Source: Nocardioides kribbensis (GTDB lineage: Bacteria > Actinomycetota > Actinomycetes > Propionibacteriales > Nocardioidaceae). From it: a DNA stretch of 64,000 bases. This document shows positions 50,999 through 59,568 of this stretch, in pieces. The DNA is taken from contig NZ_JADCLL010000001.1 in the NCBI RefSeq assembly GCF_015070375.1, positions 932,501-996,500 of the forward strand, in the 5' to 3' direction. The notes below the pieces were generated by a model. It saw only the letters and a list, made by a program, of their open reading frames with translations. It ran no database searches and was not told the DNA's origin. Position numbers and translations under genes: made by a program. Position 1 is the stretch's first letter; the number at the start of each line of letters is the position of its first letter.

Positions 50999-53518
50999 CT
51001 AGCCCGGCTCCCGGCCACCCACGAATCGCGCCGCGGCGTCGACGGCGTCGACGAGGTCGTCGAGGTCGGTGCGCACGGGCGTCGTGTCCGTCCGCGGCGG
51101 CTCGGGCACGGGCCGGCCCAGCCCCCACCAGTCCAGCGGCTGCACGTGCACCGCGGCGGTGACCGCCGCAGCGCCCGGGGGCTGACCGCCCACCCAGGCC
51201 AGCTGCACGGCCACCTCGTCGCCGGCCTCCCCGGCGCCCGCGCCCACGCCGGCGACGAGGGCGCGGCCCGGCACCGCGGCCGGGAGGACCGCGGCCGCGG
51301 TGGTGCCGAGCAGGTCGAGGCTGCCCTCCTCGTCGAGGCGCAGCGCGATGCGACGCGTCACCACCGAGCGCACCGCAGCGGGCACCGCGCGGGGTCGACC
51401 GGTCGCCGCCAGCAGGTGCAGCCGGGCGTCGCGGCCGGCCAGCCAGGCCAGCGCCTCGGCCGTGCCGGGCGAGGCCGACTCCAGCAGGTCGAGGTCGTCG
51501 ACCACCACGAGGACCTCCCGGGCGGTGCGCAGGGCGGCCTCCGCGGCGCGCACCGGGCCCTCCCCCGCGGCGGCGTCGGCGGGTCGCGCGTGCGGGAGCC
51601 CGGCCAGCGCCGCGAGTCCGGCGAGGGTCGCCCGCCCGGGTGCGGCGGCTCCGCCGTCGACGAGCACGACGGCGAGGGCGTCGGGTGAGCGCGACAGCGT
51701 CGCGGCGCCCGCCATCGTCAGCAGCGCCGCGGTGCGCCCCGTGCCGGGGAGCCCGGCCACGACGGTGTGGGCGCCGGGTGCCAGCGGGTCGAGGTCCACC
51801 GGGCCGTCGCCACCGACCCCGACCGGCACCGCACCCGCGGGGGCGCCACGGTCGCGCTCGTCCCACGCCCGGGCCAGGGCGGCCTCGCCGAGGGCGTCGG
51901 CGGGCAGCAGGTCGCGCAGGCGCACCCGCTCGGGCAGGAGCGGACCCGCGACCGGGTCGAGCACCGGCGAGAGGCGCCGGGCGGCGCGGTCGACCAGCGC
52001 CGGGGCCACGCCCTCCAGACGCACGCGCGGCAGTCGCTCCTGGCCGCTGCGGGCCAGGGCGGCGTACGACGGCTGGGCCGCGTCGACCAGCAGGGTCGCC
52101 GAGCAGCGCTCGGGGAGGTCGGCCTCGCGCTCGTCGACGCAGACGGCGTGGACGCCGACGGCGGGCCCGTCGCGCAGCAGCTCGGTCAGCGCGGCCGACC
52201 CGCCCGGGGCGTCGGCGAGGGCGCGGTGGCCGTGGACGACCACGACGTGGGCCGCCCCGCGCTCACCGGCACGGCGCCGGCGCACGGTCGCCAGCAGGTC
52301 GCCGAGGCGGGCCTGGTGGCCGCTGGGATCGACCCCCACCCGCGCCGCCCCGCCCGCGGGACCGGCGGGCCGCAGGTGCGGCAGCCACCGCAGCCACGAC
52401 CAGGCCTCGTCGGCGCGGCTGCTCAGCACGGTGAGGCCGAGGTCGCCGGGAGCGTGGGCGGCGCACAGCTGCAGCAGCAGCCAGCGCAGCACGGCGTCGC
52501 CGACCGCGCCGGGGCCGGCCACCCCGAGGACCGGGGTCCCGCGCAGCGAGACCGCCACCGGCACGTCGCGCAGCCAGGGCCGGTCGGCGGGGGTGCCGCC
52601 GCGCAGCTCCATGCCCGCCGGTCGCGGGCCGGTGCCCACGCGCAGCACCAGGAAGTCGTCGTCCTCGGGGCGCCGCTCCCACAGCCGCCGACCGTGCTGC
52701 AGCACCGTGGCCACCGTGCTCGCCGGGTCGGGCAGCAGCCCGCGGGCCTCCTTCTGCTCCTGCAGCACGGCCTCGCGCAGCAGCCGCCGCACGTCGTCGC
52801 CGAGGTCGCTGGGCCCGGTGCGACCTCCCCGCCACCCCCGCCCCCGCGGGGCCGGGGGGAGGTCGATGGCGAGCGGGTGGGCGGCGCCCCGCACGCGCGG
52901 GGGCCGCTGGAGCCTGAGCCAGCCGGGTGCGGCCGGCTCGGTCAGGGCGGCCGCACCCGCACCGACGCGCAGCTCGCACAGCGAGTCGCCCACCGCCAGC
53001 GACTCGCCCTGGCGCCACGACACGGGCACCTGCGGTGGGCAGGCCCGCCCGTCGATGGCGGTGCCGTTGCTCGAGCCCAGGTCGGTCACGGTGACGGCCA
53101 CCGACGTCACCCCCACCCGGCAGTGGCGCCGCGAGAGCGAGTGGTCGGCCCAGGAGAGGGCGCCGCTGCGGCCGATCTCGTGCGTGCCGGCCGGCAGCGG
53201 GAGGACCGCACCGCTGTCGGGCCCGCTCACGACGTGCAGCTGGAGACCGCGGCCCAGCCGGGGAGGCGAGACGTCGGCGCCGAGGAAGCCGATCCGGCTG
53301 CCGTCGAGGAGGCCGAGGTCGGCGACGGTGCCGCGTCCGGTGGGGATGCCGCCGTCGAGCGTGGTGGGTCCCCCGCGCGGCACCACCATGGGCGCGTCGG
53401 GGGCCCCGGCGAGGGCGCGCAGCCGACGCTCGAGCTCGGCGGCGGGGCCGGACTCGTCGCAGTCGACGAGCACGTCGAGGGCCCGCGCGGGGGTCTGCAG
53501 CGTGACGGTGACGCGCAC
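50999..53518 (-). CDS. FHA domain / EccC-like FtsK-SpoIIIE ATPase, degenerate
   Basis: The 839-aa soluble protein resembles the front part of EccC/EssC, the type VII secretion ATPase. Residues 1-40 look like the N-terminal beta-grasp domain. An FHA domain at about 93-185 has the key residues G116-R117, S129-R-R-H132 and GSSNGT (148-153), so it can bind phospho-Thr. Residues about 275-500 match the pre-ATPase region (LWERRPEDDDFLVLRVG and PSGHQARLGDLLA). One ATPase module follows, where the Walker A is GLPGTGRTAALL (589-600): Arg replaces the essential Lys. Walker B-like EVLVVVDDLDLL is present. EccC has about three ATPase modules and two transmembrane helices; here there is one and none. GTG at 53518 is 8 bases after the kinase stop. 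Confidence 0.75.
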   Translation of the reverse strand: MRVTVTLQTPARALDVLVDCDESGPAAELERRLRALAGAPDAPMVVPRGGPTTLDGGIPTGRGTVADLGLLDGSRIGFLGADVSPPRLGRGLQLHVVSGPDSGAVLPLPAGTHEIGRSGALSWADHSLSRRHCRVGVTSVAVTVTDLGSSNGTAIDGRACPPQVPVSWRQGESLAVGDSLCELRVGAGAAALTEPAAPGWLRLQRPPRVRGAAHPLAIDLPPAPRGRGWRGGRTGPSDLGDDVRRLLREAVLQEQKEARGLLPDPASTVATVLQHGRRLWERRPEDDDFLVLRVGTGPRPAGMELRGGTPADRPWLRDVPVAVSLRGTPVLGVAGPGAVGDAVLRWLLLQLCAAHAPGDLGLTVLSSRADEAWSWLRWLPHLRPAGPAGGAARVGVDPSGHQARLGDLLATVRRRRAGERGAAHVVVVHGHRALADAPGGSAALTELLRDGPAVGVHAVCVDEREADLPERCSATLLVDAAQPSYAALARSGQERLPRVRLEGVAPALVDRAARRLSPVLDPVAGPLLPERVRLRDLLPADALGEAALARAWDERDRGAPAGAVPVGVGGDGPVDLDPLAPGAHTVVAGLPGTGRTAALLTMAGAATLSRSPDALAVVLVDGGAAAPGRATLAGLAALAGLPHARPADAAAGEGPVRAAEAALRTAREVLVVVDDLDLLESASPGTAEALAWLAGRDARLHLLAATGRPRAVPAAVRSVVTRRIALRLDEEGSLDLLGTTAAAVLPAAVPGRALVAGVGAGAGEAGDEVAVQLAWVGGQPPGAAAVTAAVHVQPLDWWGLGRPVPEPPRTDTTPVRTDLDDLVDAVDAAARFVGGREPG

Positions 53519-53526
53519 GGGGCGGG

Positions 53527-55494
53527 TCAGCTCCCGCGCGACTCGACGCTGAAGCGGGCCCGGGGGCTCACCCTCAGCTCCCCGACCTGGGCCCGCAGGA
53601 AGCACGGCCCGGTGAAGGAGGCCACCACGGTGAGCCCGTCGCCGGAGAAGCGCAGCGCGCTGCAGCCCTCCAGCTCGACCCCGTCGAGGCCGCCGGCCAC
53701 CGCGGTCAGCACGCCGGTGGCCGAGCCGGTCACGGGGGCGGCCAGGAGCGGCCGGGCCAGGTCGGGCTCACCTCCCCACAGCGGGTAGAGCGTGTACTGC
53801 ACCGGCGCGCCGCCCGCGGTGCGCAGGTCGACGCGGGGCGCGACGTCGACCTCGACGCCGCGCAGCCGCTGCACCGGGTAGGCGTCGTCGCTGGTCTGGC
53901 GGGCCAGAGCGGTCTCCCCCGCCTCGGCCGCGCCCTCGAGCCAGCCCTGGAGCTCCTCCTCGCTGTCGACGCCCAGCTCCAGCGGCAGTCGCGCGGTCAC
54001 GGCCACCTCACCGCGCGCGGGCACCTGCCCGACGTCGACGGCCCAGCCGCAGTCGGCCAGCACGCCGGTGTCGGCGACGTTGTTGGCGCGCGCCTGCGCG
54101 CCCGACCAGGAGATCGATCCGGGGCACTCGCCGCCGTCGGCGGCCGGTAGCACCTCGAGGAAGGGCCCCGTGAGCGGCGAGCCACCCGCGGAGTAGGTCA
54201 CGGTGAGCTCCACGGTGGAGGAGGCCGGGTCGTAGCTGGCCTCGCGGTCGATGCTCAGCCCCGTCGGCAGCGGGTCGCCGTCGAGGGAGGCCTCGGCGGC
54301 CACGCCGACGGGCACCTCCGGTGCGTCGCCGCCGCCGTCGTCGGCGCCCGCGGTGACCACGCCCAGGGTCACGGCCGCCGCCGCGGCGAGCGCCACCGCG
54401 CCGGCCGCCCACGGCACCCAGCCCGGCCGGGCGGCACGGCGCCGCGGCGGGGTGGACGGCGGGGTGGACGGCGCAGTCGACGGCGGGGCCGACGGGGGCG
54501 GACTCGTGGGTGCGGCGAAGGCCGCGGCCGGTCGGTCGGCGTGGAGGTTGGTGGCGCCCACGTCGAGGTGGGCGGGACTGGCGTCGATCTGCACCGCGGG
54601 CGCCCGCAGCATGGTGCCCTGCACGATGTCCCACTCCTCGGGGGCCGGCTGGACCTCCAGGCGCGGGGCGTCGAGCACCTCGTCGGGCAGCTGGCGCAGC
54701 GCCTGGGCGGTGGCCGCGGCGGTCATGCGCGTCGTGGGGTCCTTGGCCAACATCGTGGCCAGCACGTTCCACAGGGCAGGGGCCACCGGCAGGCGCGGCG
54801 GCTGCACCGACGCGTGCCGGAAGCCGACGGTGTGGGCCGTGCCGGAGCCGGAGAAGGGAGTGCGCCCGCCGAGCAGCTCGTAGAGCAGGATGCCCGCGGC
54901 GTAGACGTCGGAGGCGGCGCTGAAGCTGCCCTGCACGAAGAGCTCGGGCGGCATGTAGCCGGGGGTGCCGAGCAGGCCGGTGGCCTGCACGGTCGACTCC
55001 TGGGCCAGGCGGGCGATACCGAAGTCGGTGAGCAGCAGGTCGCTCTCGTCGTAGTCGCCGTCGACGCCGCGCAGGAGCACGTTGTCGGGCTTGACGTCGC
55101 GGTGCAGGCAGCTCTGCTGGTGGGCGGCGTCGAGCGCGTCGAGCACGGCGGCGGTCAGCCGCACCGCGTCGCGCGCGCGGAGGGTGCCGACGTCGCGCAG
55201 GTGCTTGCGCAGGTCGGTGCCCTCGACGAGGTCCATGACGATCGCCAGCGCGTCGCCCTCGACGACGAGGTCGTGGACCTCGACGATGTTGGGGTGGTGC
55301 AGGGCGAGCAGGATGGCCCGCTCCTGGATGAAGCGCCCGACGATCTGCGGGTCGTGGGCCAGCTCGCGACGCAGCACCTTCGCGGCCACCCACCGCTCGC
55401 CGACGCGGTCCCACGTGCGCCACACGGTGCCCATCGCACCCTCGCCGAGCTCGTCGACGAGCTCGTAGCGACTGCCCAGGGCCTGACGGTTCAC
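53527..55494 (-). CDS. Transmembrane Ser/Thr protein kinase
   Basis: The 655-aa PknB-type (Hanks) kinase has residues 10-270 as catalytic domain: GEGAMGTVW (P-loop), K39 in VAAKVL, HRDVKPDN with catalytic D133, DFGIAR and GTPGYMPPE. An activation-loop Thr is available in the GLLGTPGY region. A Pro/Ser/Thr-rich juxtamembrane stretch follows (PPPSAPPSTAPSTPP). A transmembrane helix (about 420-445) and a 210-residue extracellular domain come next, with no PASTA repeats but four Cys (GECPG, ADCGW, EGCSA, GPCFL). All key kinase residues are intact. Its FHA neighbour is the probable phospho-partner. Confidence 0.9.
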   Translation of the reverse strand: MNRQALGSRYELVDELGEGAMGTVWRTWDRVGERWVAAKVLRRELAHDPQIVGRFIQERAILLALHHPNIVEVHDLVVEGDALAIVMDLVEGTDLRKHLRDVGTLRARDAVRLTAAVLDALDAAHQQSCLHRDVKPDNVLLRGVDGDYDESDLLLTDFGIARLAQESTVQATGLLGTPGYMPPELFVQGSFSAASDVYAAGILLYELLGGRTPFSGSGTAHTVGFRHASVQPPRLPVAPALWNVLATMLAKDPTTRMTAAATAQALRQLPDEVLDAPRLEVQPAPEEWDIVQGTMLRAPAVQIDASPAHLDVGATNLHADRPAAAFAAPTSPPPSAPPSTAPSTPPSTPPRRRAARPGWVPWAAGAVALAAAAAVTLGVVTAGADDGGGDAPEVPVGVAAEASLDGDPLPTGLSIDREASYDPASSTVELTVTYSAGGSPLTGPFLEVLPAADGGECPGSISWSGAQARANNVADTGVLADCGWAVDVGQVPARGEVAVTARLPLELGVDSEEELQGWLEGAAEAGETALARQTSDDAYPVQRLRGVEVDVAPRVDLRTAGGAPVQYTLYPLWGGEPDLARPLLAAPVTGSATGVLTAVAGGLDGVELEGCSALRFSGDGLTVVASFTGPCFLRAQVGELRVSPRARFSVESRGS

Positions 55495-55504
55495 CGGCCC
55501 GCTC

Positions 55505-56833
55505 TCATCGACCGGCGGCGGCGGTCGCGAACCAGTACAGGCGCGGCGCCGCCTCCTCCTCGGTGGCCGCGACCGGGCGGACCTGCGGGTCCTGGGTGGT
55601 CGCCTCGAGCGCGACGACGGCGTCGGGCGCGAGCGCCTGGCTGTCGGCGAAGTCCAGGGCCGGGCCGGCCAGGCCGTCGGAGGTGTCGACGGTGAGCCCG
55701 GTGAGTGCGGCCGCGACGTCGGCCGGCTCGACCGACCCCGCCTCCACGGCGGCGGCCGCGAGCGCGAGCACCGCGTCGTGGCTGGCGGTGTCGGCACCCT
55801 CGGCCACGTCGGCGAAGGGCACGCTGCCGAAGAGGTCCTGGAGCTCCGGGTCGCCGGCGGCCAGGCGCAGGGCCGAGAAGTACGACGCGGTCGCCTCGGC
55901 GCGCTGGCTCGTGCCGAGGGTGGTGGCGTCGGAGGCGTCCACGCCGACGGTGAGGAACTCCCCGGCCGGGGTGCCCCCCGCCTCGGTCAGCCCCGTGGCG
56001 AAGCCCGGGCTGAGGGCCTCGGGCGACAGCACGACCGGCGCGGTGCTGCCGCGGCCCTGGAGCGCGGCCACGACCTGGGCCTGGCTGGTGGCCGAGGCCG
56101 CGACGACCACGCTGTCGGCGGTGCCGTCCTCGACGGCGCGGGTCGCCCGGGCCACCACGGCGCCGAGGTCGTCGCCGGTGTAGTCCTCGCGGTCGGCCGA
56201 GCCGACGCCGTCCACGTCGACGCCGTCGCCGCTGACCACGAAGGGCTGCTCGAGGCCGCGCTCCCCCATGGCGGCGAGGAGCGCCTGGTCGACGGCGTCG
56301 CCTGAGGGGCCGGTGGCCCACACGCCGTCGGGCAGGGCGGTGAGCTCGCGCTCGTAGGGCAGCAGGAGGGGCACACCGGCCCCTGCGGCCGCGTCGACCG
56401 CGGCCTGCAGGTGCTCGCCGGTGCTGGCGGCGACGATGCCGGACACACCGGCGTCCACGAGGTCGGCGACCGCCCGGGTCGCGCCCTCGCTCGTGCCCGC
56501 GTCGTCGACGACCTCGAGCTCCACGTCGGCCCCGCCCAGCCCGAGCCGGTACGCCGCGACGCGGGCGCCCTCGGCCGCGGTGAGGACGTCCTGGCCCTCC
56601 CCCGGCGCGGAGCGCAGCGAGACCAGCACCCCGACCCGCAACGGCTCGCCGACCTCGGCGAGGGCCCCGGCCGCGTCGAGCTCGACGGCCGGGGCGGCAC
56701 CGGCGGCACCGGACGCGGGGGCGGCCGGCTCCTCGCCGCCGTCGTCACCGCTGCAGGCGACCAGCGTGGTGAGCGCCAGGGCGGCCAGGGTCAGTCCGGC
56801 GGCGCGACGGGCGCGGGGCGGGGTCGTGCGCAC
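55505..56833 (-). CDS. Substrate-binding lipoprotein (type 1 periplasmic, branched-chain-amino-acid-like)
   Basis: The 442-aa lipoprotein has a signal peptide RRAAGLTLAALALTTLVAC with lipobox LVAC, so the Cys at about 26 is lipid-anchored outside the membrane. A type 1 binding fold follows: LRVGVLVSLRSAPGEGQDV, GVSGIVAASTGEHLQAAVDAAAGAG and VVVAASATSQAQVVAAL. No ABC permease or ATPase gene is next to it, so it may be a sensor for the kinase rather than a transporter subunit. The GTG start is 2 bases after the coiled-coil gene stop. The ligand is unknown. Confidence 0.8.
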   Translation of the reverse strand: MRTTPPRARRAAGLTLAALALTTLVACSGDDGGEEPAAPASGAAGAAPAVELDAAGALAEVGEPLRVGVLVSLRSAPGEGQDVLTAAEGARVAAYRLGLGGADVELEVVDDAGTSEGATRAVADLVDAGVSGIVAASTGEHLQAAVDAAAGAGVPLLLPYERELTALPDGVWATGPSGDAVDQALLAAMGERGLEQPFVVSGDGVDVDGVGSADREDYTGDDLGAVVARATRAVEDGTADSVVVAASATSQAQVVAALQGRGSTAPVVLSPEALSPGFATGLTEAGGTPAGEFLTVGVDASDATTLGTSQRAEATASYFSALRLAAGDPELQDLFGSVPFADVAEGADTASHDAVLALAAAAVEAGSVEPADVAAALTGLTVDTSDGLAGPALDFADSQALAPDAVVALEATTQDPQVRPVAATEEEAAPRLYWFATAAAGR

Positions 56834-56835
56834 GC

Positions 56836-59568
56836 TCAGTCCTGGCCCAGGTGGAAGGAGTAGACCGTCAGCACGTCGCTGCCCTCGGGCACGTCGAGGC
56901 CGAAGGCCGGCAGGGCCTCCTGCAGCTCGAGCGCACGCGCCATCTGGGCCTGCTGCAGGAAGACGTCGGCCAGGGCCTGGCTGCGCACGCTGCGGAAACG
57001 CGTGGCCCGGGCGTTGGCCGAGGAGATCTGCTCGTTGGCCACGGCGGTCTGGGTGGCCCCGGTGACCAGCGAGCCCAGGATGCCTGTGCCGCCGGACTCG
57101 CGGGTGCCGAGGTCGGCCAGGACGTTGCCGAGGTCCTCGGTCAGGCGGGACTCGGAGTCGGCGACGCTGCGGTTGGCCGCCGAGACCGTCGAGTCGAGCA
57201 CGGAGAGCGCGTCGCCGACGGCACCGTCGAGGGCCAGGCCCGACGCGCGGACCGTGGCGTCGAGCTGGGTGCGCTGGGCCTCGATGCGCTCAGCCCCCTG
57301 CCCGGTGATCCGGTCGGAGGTGCGCTGGGCGCCGCGGCCGAGGCGGCCGAAGAGCTCGCTGACCTTGCCGCTGGCCTGGATGCGGGCCGCGTCGGTGCCG
57401 GCGATGGCCTCGCCCAGCGCGCCGCCCGAGCCCGAGAGGCCGTCGGTGATCGCGTCGATGCTGGCGTCGAGGTCGGCCTCGAGGCCGTCCTGGTTGCAGG
57501 CCACCTTGGTGTAGGTGAGGACGAGGCGGTCGACGGGCTTGCTCAGCGCGGGTGCGTCGTCGACGTCCTCGCACGAGGGCGCGGCGTAGGAGTCGCTGAG
57601 CGACACGACGCTCTCGGTGAGCTTGGAGAGCCGGCCGGCCAGGGAGCCGGCGGAGGCGTTGGTGGCGGCGGTGACGCGCTCGAGGGCCTGGTCGACGCCG
57701 CTCTGGATCGCGGCGAAGTCGACCGCCACGGCGTCCTTCGACGAGAGTCCCGCGATGCTGTCGAGGGTCGCGACGACCGGCGCGAGGCGCGCGTCGACGG
57801 TCGAGCCCGGGGTGGCGCAGCCGGCCTGGTCCCGGGCGGTCTGGATCTGGCCGGCCAGGGTCGCGTCGGCGGTGGCCGCGGGGTCCATGGCGCACACGGT
57901 GCCGCGCAGCGCGGCCAGGTCGGCCTGGAGGCTGCGGGCGGTGGCGGCCTGGGAGACGGCCTGGGCGTTGATGGTCTCGAAGCGGCGGCGCAGCCCGGAG
58001 GTGGCGTCGGGGCCGAGGAGGTTCTTGAGGTTGGTCAGCGTGACGCTCAGCTGGCCGAGGACGGCGTCGAGCGGCTCGAGGGGGTTGCCCGGGTTGGTGG
58101 GGTCGACCTGGAGCGCGGTCTTCTTCACCGACTCCACCAGGGAGGTCACCCCGGCGACCTGGACGCCCAGGTCGTCGACGAGGCTCTCGTCGAAGCGGCC
58201 GCCGAGGCGGTCGCCCAGCGCCTGGAGGACCTCGCCCTGGTCGCCGACGGCCCGGCTGGCCGCGGAGAGCACGCAGACCGCGGAGGTGGACTCCTCGGTG
58301 CAGGTCGCGACGTCGGCGGCGGAGCCGATCTGCTCGCGCAGGGAGTCGACGATGCGCTCGCTGCACTCCGTGCCGGCCTCGCCGAGGGTCTCGAGGCGGC
58401 TGGCCACGGCCACGAGCTGGCCGTAGACGGTGTCGGAGGCGAGGCTGCCGCCGAGCACGACGCCGCAGCCGCCGCCGGTGCCGGCGGGCTGGGGAGCGGG
58501 GATCCGGTCGGGGTCGCCGAGCTTGGCCTTGACGGCGTCGATGCTGCGGGCGAGCGCGGCGTTGGCGGAGTCGGTGGCGCCGCCGAGCTCGCCGCCGACC
58601 TGCTCGCGCAGGGCGTCGAGGTCGGTGGTGAGGCCGCTGAGGGAGGCCGTGACCTCCTGCGAGGAGCGCTGCAGCTCGGCGATGGTGCGGGCGCCGAGCT
58701 GGTCGGCCGAGGCGCCGAGGCGGCTCTCGATCTCGCCCAGCACGCCGCTGGCCTCGGTGAGCACGGCGTTGACGTCGCCGACGAGCTGGATGGTCTGGGC
58801 CTCCATCGACACCGTGCTGCCGGCGTCGTCGGCGAAGGCCTGCTCCAGCAGCGCCGCGACCGAGGTGTCGGTGACCAGGCCGGGCTGCACGCTGAGATCG
58901 AAGTCGGGCACGCTGAGCGAGTCGGACTTCATCACGAGGCGGAAGGTCGCGCTGGGCGCGAGGCGCGGCGGGGCGAGCATCGAGGCCCACTGCACCTGGG
59001 CGGCGCCGTCGGCGGACTGGCTCAGCACGCCGTTGGTGCCGTCCTCGCCGCGGGTCAGCACCTGGGTCAGGCCCTCGTCGCCGAGGTCGGCGGAGGCCAC
59101 GACGGTCAGGGGCGCTCCGATGAGGGCGTACTGCGTGCGCGAGACGCCCTCGGCGTCGTAGCTGACCCGCTCGGGCCGCACGGTGGTGTTCTGCACGGTG
59201 ACGTCGATGACGACGCGGCCGCTCTCGCCCTCGATGTCGGAGAGGTCGGTGCCGGCCCGGTCGTCGAGGCGGTAGGTCGTGGAGACGCGCACCGGGAGGT
59301 CGTCGGCGTCGGCGGCGTCGAAGTCCTGGCTCTCGCTGGCCGAGCCGCCGTCGGAGTCCTGGGTGATGGTGGTGCCCGAGAGCGAGCCGATGCTGCCGTC
59401 GGGGCCGAGCTGCACGTCGACCGCCTGGAGGGTCTGCTCGGTCGCGGCCTCGGCCGAGGTCGTGGCCGCCGAGAGCAGGCCGCCGACCAGGGCGACCACC
59501 ACCGCCGACTGGGCCGTGCGGCGGACCGCTCTCGGGTGGTTCCTCGCCGAGTGACGGGCGACAGACAT
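56836..59568 (-). CDS. Secreted coiled-coil-rich protein of unknown function
   Basis: The 910-aa protein has a Sec signal peptide (RTAQSAVVVALVGGLLSAATTSAEA, cut near 43). An N-terminal beta-rich domain of about 200 residues follows (TYRLDDRAGTDLSDIEGESGR). A long helical part of about 650 residues with heptad-like Leu/Ala spacing then runs on, with regular Asp/Ser/Ala-rich stretches and eight or more Cys in the middle (GGGCGVVLG, ECSERIV, TCTEESTSAVC). No transmembrane helix is evident. It may form a long extracellular stalk, in the manner of EsaA/YueB but without their membrane helices. I do not recognise a family. It has a good SD (GAGGAG) 4 bases before the ATG and leads the four-gene operon. 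Confidence 0.7.
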   Translation of the reverse strand: MSVARHSARNHPRAVRRTAQSAVVVALVGGLLSAATTSAEAATEQTLQAVDVQLGPDGSIGSLSGTTITQDSDGGSASESQDFDAADADDLPVRVSTTYRLDDRAGTDLSDIEGESGRVVIDVTVQNTTVRPERVSYDAEGVSRTQYALIGAPLTVVASADLGDEGLTQVLTRGEDGTNGVLSQSADGAAQVQWASMLAPPRLAPSATFRLVMKSDSLSVPDFDLSVQPGLVTDTSVAALLEQAFADDAGSTVSMEAQTIQLVGDVNAVLTEASGVLGEIESRLGASADQLGARTIAELQRSSQEVTASLSGLTTDLDALREQVGGELGGATDSANAALARSIDAVKAKLGDPDRIPAPQPAGTGGGCGVVLGGSLASDTVYGQLVAVASRLETLGEAGTECSERIVDSLREQIGSAADVATCTEESTSAVCVLSAASRAVGDQGEVLQALGDRLGGRFDESLVDDLGVQVAGVTSLVESVKKTALQVDPTNPGNPLEPLDAVLGQLSVTLTNLKNLLGPDATSGLRRRFETINAQAVSQAATARSLQADLAALRGTVCAMDPAATADATLAGQIQTARDQAGCATPGSTVDARLAPVVATLDSIAGLSSKDAVAVDFAAIQSGVDQALERVTAATNASAGSLAGRLSKLTESVVSLSDSYAAPSCEDVDDAPALSKPVDRLVLTYTKVACNQDGLEADLDASIDAITDGLSGSGGALGEAIAGTDAARIQASGKVSELFGRLGRGAQRTSDRITGQGAERIEAQRTQLDATVRASGLALDGAVGDALSVLDSTVSAANRSVADSESRLTEDLGNVLADLGTRESGGTGILGSLVTGATQTAVANEQISSANARATRFRSVRSQALADVFLQQAQMARALELQEALPAFGLDVPEGSDVLTVYSFHLGQD

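What the first reader, a model, noticed from the sequence alone, without database searches (positions are those of the whole stretch)
50999..59568. Four-gene operon: secreted coiled-coil protein, substrate-binding lipoprotein, membrane Ser/Thr kinase, FHA/EccC-like ATPase
Gaps are 2, 10 and 8 bases, so co-expression is nearly certain. The kinase spans the membrane and the FHA protein can read phospho-Thr. The other two products act outside the cell. The ATPase resembles a type VII secretion ATPase front half, while no WXG100 substrate or other ESX core gene is present. This looks like a signalling or export system of unknown function and is my best candidate for an undescribed system in the window.
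Basis: partly seen in the sequence, partly recalled or inferred. Interest (0 to 1): 0.75.

Follow-up and report, generated by a model that had tools for sequence, protein, structure and literature searches.

The report
Dismantled type VII secretion operon
In this Nocardioides genome a four-gene operon descends from a bacterial protein-export machine (a type VII secretion system) whose motor has been shortened and inactivated, while its outward-facing and signalling parts (a secreted rod, a ligand-binding lipoprotein, a membrane kinase and a phospho-threonine reader) were kept, so an export machine may have become a sensor.

Summary
The operon is real: four minus-strand genes with gaps of 2, 10 and 8 bases (I secreted coiled coil, L solute-binding lipoprotein, D membrane Ser/Thr kinase, C FHA/EccC-like). 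It is not an orphan system. Relatives in Nocardioidaceae and Propionibacteriaceae show a T7SS variant that I did not find described: I, L, D, a full ~1,440-aa C with membrane segment and several ATPase domains, and a WXG100 protein; one subtype sits beside Rhs genes. In the window C is 839 aa: membrane segment and ATPases 2-3 are gone, ATPase 1 has Walker-A Lys->Arg, and the genome lacks the cognate WXG100. The nearest relatives keep only the front of C including its FHA domain; six others lost C completely; all keep I-L-D. The cognate WXG100 occurs in 6/6 genomes with full C and 0/10 without. In C-free lineages I, L and D stay under purifying selection (dN/dS 0.07-0.28). Inside shrunken C the FHA domain stays constrained (0.37-0.46) while the motor part drifts (0.74-1.1). 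Best reading: a T7SS stripped of its motor and reused as a ligand-sensing kinase-FHA relay, analogous to GlnH-GlnX-PknG-GarA. The derivation is strongly supported; the signalling function is inferred.

The parts
56836..59568 (-). Gene I (910 aa): secreted protein, signal peptide about 1-42, beta-rich domain 45-229, long coiled-coil region about 250-890
   Evidence: ORF; signal region; secondary structure from a low-confidence model; conserved N-terminal domain in 18 relatives
55505..56833 (-). Gene L (442 aa): Peripla_BP_6 solute-binding lipoprotein, lipobox LVAC at residue 27, no ABC transporter genes beside it
53527..55494 (-). Gene D (655 aa): membrane Ser/Thr kinase with ectodomain
54703..55467 (-). 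D kinase domain (residues 10-264), catalytic motifs VAAK, HRDVKPDN, DFG, PPE intact; nearest solved relatives PknA/PknB
54352..54408 (-). D transmembrane segment (about 363-381)
   Evidence: hydropathy
53530..54342 (-). D ectodomain (about 385-655) with cysteines 457, 482, 611, 631 invariant in 16 relatives
50999..53518 (-). Gene C (839 aa): reduced FHA-EccC/EssC-type protein, GTG start
53285..53518 (-). C residues 1-78: ubiquitin-like (beta-grasp) domain, tentative
   Evidence: order of strands and helices in the AF2 model; no Pfam match
52958..53251 (-). C residues 90-187: FHA domain, motifs GRSG...SRRHC and DLGSSNG intact, retained in every shortened C
52825..52837 (-). Junction near C residue 229 where relatives carry the membrane segment that is missing here
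   Evidence: alignments; TM calls
51953..52762 (-). C residues 253-522: EccC-type DUF (degenerate ATPase-0) domain
   Evidence: VIA Z 18.4-21.6 to EccC/YukB
51104..51946 (-). C residues 525-805: shrunken ATPase 1
51731..51754 (-). Altered Walker A GLPGTGRT (residues 589-596; relatives GxTGSGK[ST])

Best explanation
The operon descends from a Propionibacteriales T7SS variant (I-L-D-C plus WXG100). In this lineage the secretion motor was dismantled: the WXG100 partner, the membrane segment of C, ATPases 2-3 and the catalytic Lys of ATPase 1 are gone (shown). The envelope and phospho-signalling module was kept: secreted rod I, binding lipoprotein L, membrane kinase D and an FHA reader on C (shown). 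It most likely works as a transmembrane sensor: L, with I as a wall-spanning scaffold, senses a ligand or wall state; D's ectodomain relays it; D phosphorylates targets; the FHA domain of C docks phospho-Thr on D or a target, as GarA/OdhI do (inferred). In lineages without C, D would use other FHA proteins (inferred).
For: Same four-gene order with full C and adjacent WXG100 in relatives. C profile hits EccC 6e-121 and YukB 7e-104 in PDB; fold match to EccC3/YukB Z 20-22. Stepwise erosion of C: about 1,440 aa, then 839 (window), 502 and 468 aa, one frameshifted copy, and no C in six genomes. Cognate WXG100 in 6/6 genomes with full C, 0/10 without. No other FHA-EssC in G000, G164, G132, G188, G212, G267. 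dN/dS of I, L, D 0.07-0.28 between C-free species. FHA 0.37-0.46 vs DUF 0.74-0.86 and ATPase 1 about 1.0-1.1 in reduced C; intact pair G176-G101 has ATPase 1 at 0.17. Kinase motifs intact in the window. C-deficient genomes fall in three places of the rpoB tree. Known functional analogue GlnH-GlnX-PknG-GarA/OdhI (PMC6069109, PMC9769921).
Against: No experiment; ligand and targets unknown. In the window's own clade dN/dS of I, L, D is higher (0.26-0.52) and C is frameshifted in G164, so function there may be fading. dN/dS is a simple NG86 count on GC-rich genes. A single loss is not rejected on I-L-D alone (AU p=0.10). The role of I rests on a poor model (pLDDT 39.5).
Confidence: 0.6

Rival explanations
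1. Simple decay: the T7SS is dying gene by gene, ATPase and WXG100 first, and I, L, D are next. The operon has no function now.
For: C frameshifted in G164; C dN/dS 0.68 and raised I, L, D values in the window clade; I broken in L184; only 18 of 216 genus genomes keep I.
Against: I, L, D intact and constrained in species with no C at all; the FHA stays constrained inside an otherwise drifting C; all four window ORFs are intact with tight spacing.
Confidence: 0.2
2. The module still serves secretion: I, L, D and shortened C act in trans with the ESX (T7SSa) machine that the genome also carries.
For: An EccC-like gene of ESX type is seen in all ten C-deficient genomes (verified by TIGR03924 for the window genome).
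Against: Intact I-L-D-C systems occur where no ESX EccC was seen (G133, G081); the cognate WXG100 is absent; C has no membrane segment.
Confidence: 0.1
3. I-L-D is mainly an envelope structure: I is a wall-spanning rod held near the membrane and D adjusts wall growth, with L only a structural partner.
For: I is a long secreted helical rod; D is closest to PknA/PknB, kinases of cell growth (own knowledge); T7SSb EsaA spans the wall (PMC11217815).
Against: L is a conserved solute-binding fold kept with the set; D has no PASTA match.
Confidence: 0.1

Closest known systems
T7SSd (Olsenella, Bifidobacterium), Garrett, Higginson and Palmer 2024, PMC11217815
   Same: Actinobacterial, FHA-bearing EssC-type ATPase with intact phospho-Thr motif, membrane Ser/Thr kinase, large secreted envelope protein, WXG100, Rhs substrates nearby (as described in the paper)
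   Different: Relatives of the window have a solute-binding lipoprotein and a Ubl-like domain fused to C; no TsdH recognised; I is about 910 aa without a C-terminal TM (TsdI about 1,650 aa with one). The window copy also lacks motor and WXG100.
T7SSb (YukB/EssC with EsaA, EssB pseudokinase, EsaB)
   Same: FHA at the ATPase N-terminus, Ubl element, kinase-fold membrane protein, extended envelope protein; C matches YukB by sequence and fold
   Different: Kinase motifs are intact here, one FHA instead of two, no EssA; I is secreted and not a multi-pass EsaA; lipoprotein added
T7SSa / ESX
   Same: EccC-type ATPase and DUF domain
   Different: No EccB, EccD, EccE or MycP at the locus; a separate ESX EccC locus exists in the same genome
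GlnH-GlnX-PknG-GarA/OdhI
   Same: Works-like: substrate-binding lipoprotein, Ser/Thr kinase and FHA protein acting as a nutrient sensor (PMC6069109, PMC9769921)
   Different: D is itself membrane-spanning with an ectodomain, no GlnX, PknG is soluble; the FHA reader is a former translocase; I has no counterpart. Not a member of that family.

Membership tests
Functional type VII secretion system (window copy) | Membrane-anchored EccC/EssC ATPase with several NTPase domains | tested here: not met
   839 aa, no TM segment, no ATPase 2-3, Walker A Lys->Arg
Functional type VII secretion system (window copy) | Cognate WXG100 protein | tested here: not met
   A11 profile finds none in G000 or nine other C-deficient genomes; found in all six full-C genomes
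Type VII secretion system (relatives with full C) | EccC/EssC ATPase plus WXG100 at one locus | tested here: met
   L043, L172, L176, L177, L185; C profile E 6e-121 to EccC, WXG100 E 1e-15 to 1e-18
Type VII secretion system (relatives with full C) | WXG100-dependent export of proteins | not testable with these tools
   needs secretome experiments
T7SSd | FHA-ATPase with membrane Ser/Thr kinase | tested here: met
   full-C relatives; in the window the kinase is intact and the ATPase degenerate
T7SSd | TsdI, about 1,650 aa with C-terminal TM, and TsdH | tested here: inconclusive
   I is about 910 aa with no C-terminal TM; no direct comparison with TsdI or TsdH sequences was made
T7SSd | C falls in the TsdC clade of the EssC tree | not tested
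   no TsdC reference set was built into a tree
T7SSb | EsaA, EssA, EssB pseudokinase and EsaB set | tested here: inconclusive
   no sequence match of I to EsaA-type families; D is an intact kinase; model of I too poor for a fold test
GlnH-GlnX-PknG-GarA sensing system | Amino-acid-binding lipoprotein of the GlnH family, GlnX and PknG | tested here: not met
   L is Peripla_BP_6, D is a membrane kinase nearest PknA/PknB, and no GlnX gene is in the operon; the resemblance is only in how it may work
GlnH-GlnX-PknG-GarA sensing system | Ligand controls phosphorylation of an FHA protein | not testable with these tools
   needs biochemistry

The most novel reading that the evidence does not exclude
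Type VII secretion systems have repeatedly been stripped of motor and WXG100 partner in Propionibacteriales, and their envelope-kinase module lives on as a stand-alone ligand-sensing phospho-relay; the window shows an intermediate in which the translocase is reduced to an FHA reader. The intact ancestor is itself an undescribed T7SS subtype with a solute-binding lipoprotein.
Probability: 0.45. Interest if true: 0.8.

Novelty: new variant of a known kind. Interest (0 to 1): 0.62.

Why it matters
Why kinases, FHA domains and envelope proteins are built into T7SS variants is open. Here natural gene losses separate that module from the motor, so its own job can be tested in strains that have nothing to export with it. 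The intact relatives add a T7SS subtype with a solute-binding lipoprotein, which suggests that export could be gated by a ligand outside the cell.

Tried and rejected
Idea that I is an EsaA/YhgE homologue: a lead from memory; no sequence hit, and the AF2 model is poor (pLDDT 39.5, three sequences) with only generic beta-sandwich matches at Z about 8; the absence of EsaA from that list excludes nothing. PDB profile hits for I are coiled-coil background. Ubl domain: no Pfam hit, left tentative. Anti-phage defence: only generic kinase matches (PD-T4-6, mad6) and a weak mad8 match; rejected. Sigma-70 promoters and terminators: none found, uninformative at this GC. pepN as species marker: dropped because of paralogues; rpoB used. 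One-loss constraint: not rejected by I-L-D alone, so three losses is favoured, not proven. Relocation of C in G273, G297, G298, G107: they hold another FHA-EssC, but at a different T7SS locus with its own WXG100s (read for G273 and G298), so it was not taken as the partner.

Full report
Observation. The window lies in a 4.1-Mb genome (G000:C6:932501-996500). The four minus-strand genes are present as described: I 59568-56836, L 56833-55505, D 55494-53527, C 53518-50999, with gaps of 2, 10 and 8 bases. The GTG start of C at 53518 (MRVTV...) agrees with the relatives. Domain searches give nothing curated for I, Peripla_BP_6 for L, Pkinase for D, and FHA plus FtsK_SpoIIIE with sub-threshold EccC/EssC matches for C. 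Records with matching contig lengths (L089, Nocardioides acrostichi = L177, a genome of the window's genus) place the host in Nocardioides.

What the relatives show. In Nocardioidaceae the same order I-L-D-C occurs with a C of 1,434-1,448 aa that has a membrane segment near residues 225-255 and several ATPase domains, and a 97-98-aa WXG100 gene lies beside it (L043, L172, L176, L177, L185; L044/G086 has its WXG100 elsewhere in the genome). A second subtype, I-L-C with the kinase beside it or elsewhere and a different WXG100-like gene, occurs in Nocardioidaceae and in a second family of the order, where complete clusters sit beside Rhs proteins of 1,250-1,880 aa (L061, L175, L198, L199, L202, L203). 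A profile of C hits EccC (6e-121), YukB (7e-104) and EccC5 (1e-82) in the PDB. The ancestor was therefore a type VII secretion system. I was found in 18 of 216 genomes of the genus, in 12 of 118 of the order, eight of them in the second family, and in a class-wide sample of 395 genomes only in the window's own family.

What happened here. Against these relatives the window's C has lost the membrane segment and ATPases 2 and 3. ATPase 1 is shortened and its Walker A reads GLPGTGRT, while the full-length relatives have GK[ST] in ATPase 1. The three closest relatives are further reduced: 502 aa (G132) and 468 aa (G188) with only the Ubl-like, FHA and DUF parts, and a frameshift just after the FHA in G164. 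Six further genomes keep I-L-D at the same chromosomal site, between prs/glmU and rplY/pth, with no C at all (L173, L174, L180-L183). G000, G164, G132, G188, G212 and G267 have no other FHA-EssC; G273, G297, G298 and G107 have one that belongs to another T7SS locus. The cognate WXG100 is present in all six genomes with full C and in none of the ten without. In the rpoB nucleotide tree the C-deficient genomes fall in three places separated by full-C genomes (UFBoot 87-100 on the separating nodes; G212 had no rpoB match). The I-L-D tree also gives three groups, but an AU test on it does not reject a single loss (p=0.10).

Is what remains under selection? Between C-free species dN/dS is 0.14-0.16 for I, 0.17-0.28 for L and 0.07-0.16 for D. 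In the window's clade the values are higher (0.26-0.52). Within C the pattern inverts relative to intact systems. Between two intact systems (G176, G101) ATPase 1 is the most conserved part (88% identity, dN/dS 0.17) and the FHA is average (0.47). Between the window and G176 the FHA keeps 64% identity (0.46), while ATPase 1 falls to 39% (1.12). Between the two most reduced proteins the FHA is at 0.37 against 0.74 for the DUF (bootstrap support 0.99). These are NG86 counts from my own script and should be read as relative values inside one gene. The kinase keeps its Lys, HRD and PPE motifs in all members and DFG in most; the DFG glycine is changed in G212 and G267, and also in the intact G133.

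Structure. AF2 of window C with 30 sequences (pLDDT 80.7) gives a beta-grasp-like N-terminus, an FHA domain (Z 17 to FHA structures), a stalk plus DUF that fits ESX-3 EccC3 (Z 21.6, 295 residues, 3.4 A) and YukB (Z 20.4), and a compact ATPase-like domain. The model of I is too poor to interpret beyond a beta domain followed by a coiled coil.

Mechanism. Shown: homology to a T7SS, loss of motor and partner, retention of I-L-D and of the FHA. Inferred: L binds a ligand outside, I spans or organises the wall, D carries the signal inwards by phosphorylation, and FHA proteins read it. The GlnH-GlnX-PknG-GarA/OdhI chain, in which an amino-acid-binding lipoprotein controls a kinase whose substrate is an FHA protein, shows that Actinobacteria use such parts together (PMC6069109, PMC9769921). 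In the intact system the same module may gate assembly or activity of the translocase through the FHA domain, an idea already raised for T7SSd/e (PMC11217815).

Novelty. The 2024 survey that defines T7SSc-j reports one new actinobacterial subtype, T7SSd, with different envelope parts and no lipoprotein, and does not mention Nocardioides or Streptomyces. Other literature searches found nothing on this gene set, but the library is open-access only and holds no preprints. I file it as a new variant of a known kind: a T7SS subtype in its intact form, and a motor-less derivative in the window.

Noticed in passing
L045, L046, L047, L049, L050, L052, L055, L056, L057, L059, L188: In Nocardioidaceae other full-length FHA-EssC ATPases sit next to Tad pilus genes (T2SSE, T2SSF, TadE matches in L052) and single WXG100 genes, without I, L or D. 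Tad next to T7SS is reported for T7SSg/h of Bacillota (PMC11217815); here it is in Actinomycetota.
   Followed up: partly
L052:5357-7825 and L049:15671-17638: Large proteins beside those FHA-EssC genes: one with an N-terminal WXG100 domain (823 aa), one with DUF6571 (656 aa), each followed by a small lipoprotein; candidate T7SS effectors with immunity partners.
   Followed up: partly
L198, L199, L202, L203: Complete I-L-C-D plus WXG100-like clusters beside Rhs genes in 2.4-2.6-Mb genomes of another family of the order: the best place to study the intact system.
   Followed up: partly
L186:4005-12105 and L187:9087-16969: A different FHA-EssC locus with two WXG100 genes flanking a 565-580-aa protein and a separate small protein upstream, in genomes that lost C from the I-L-D locus.
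   Followed up: no
L066:9888-10552 and L068:8775-9499 (same genome as the window): WXG100-type gene pairs with no EccC in the 20 kb fetched around them, besides the ESX locus on C13 (L064).
   Followed up: no
L184:4959-12965: In G293 gene I is split into two frames and C is shortened to 1,297 aa, next to YD-repeat-like fragments: another decaying copy.
   Followed up: no
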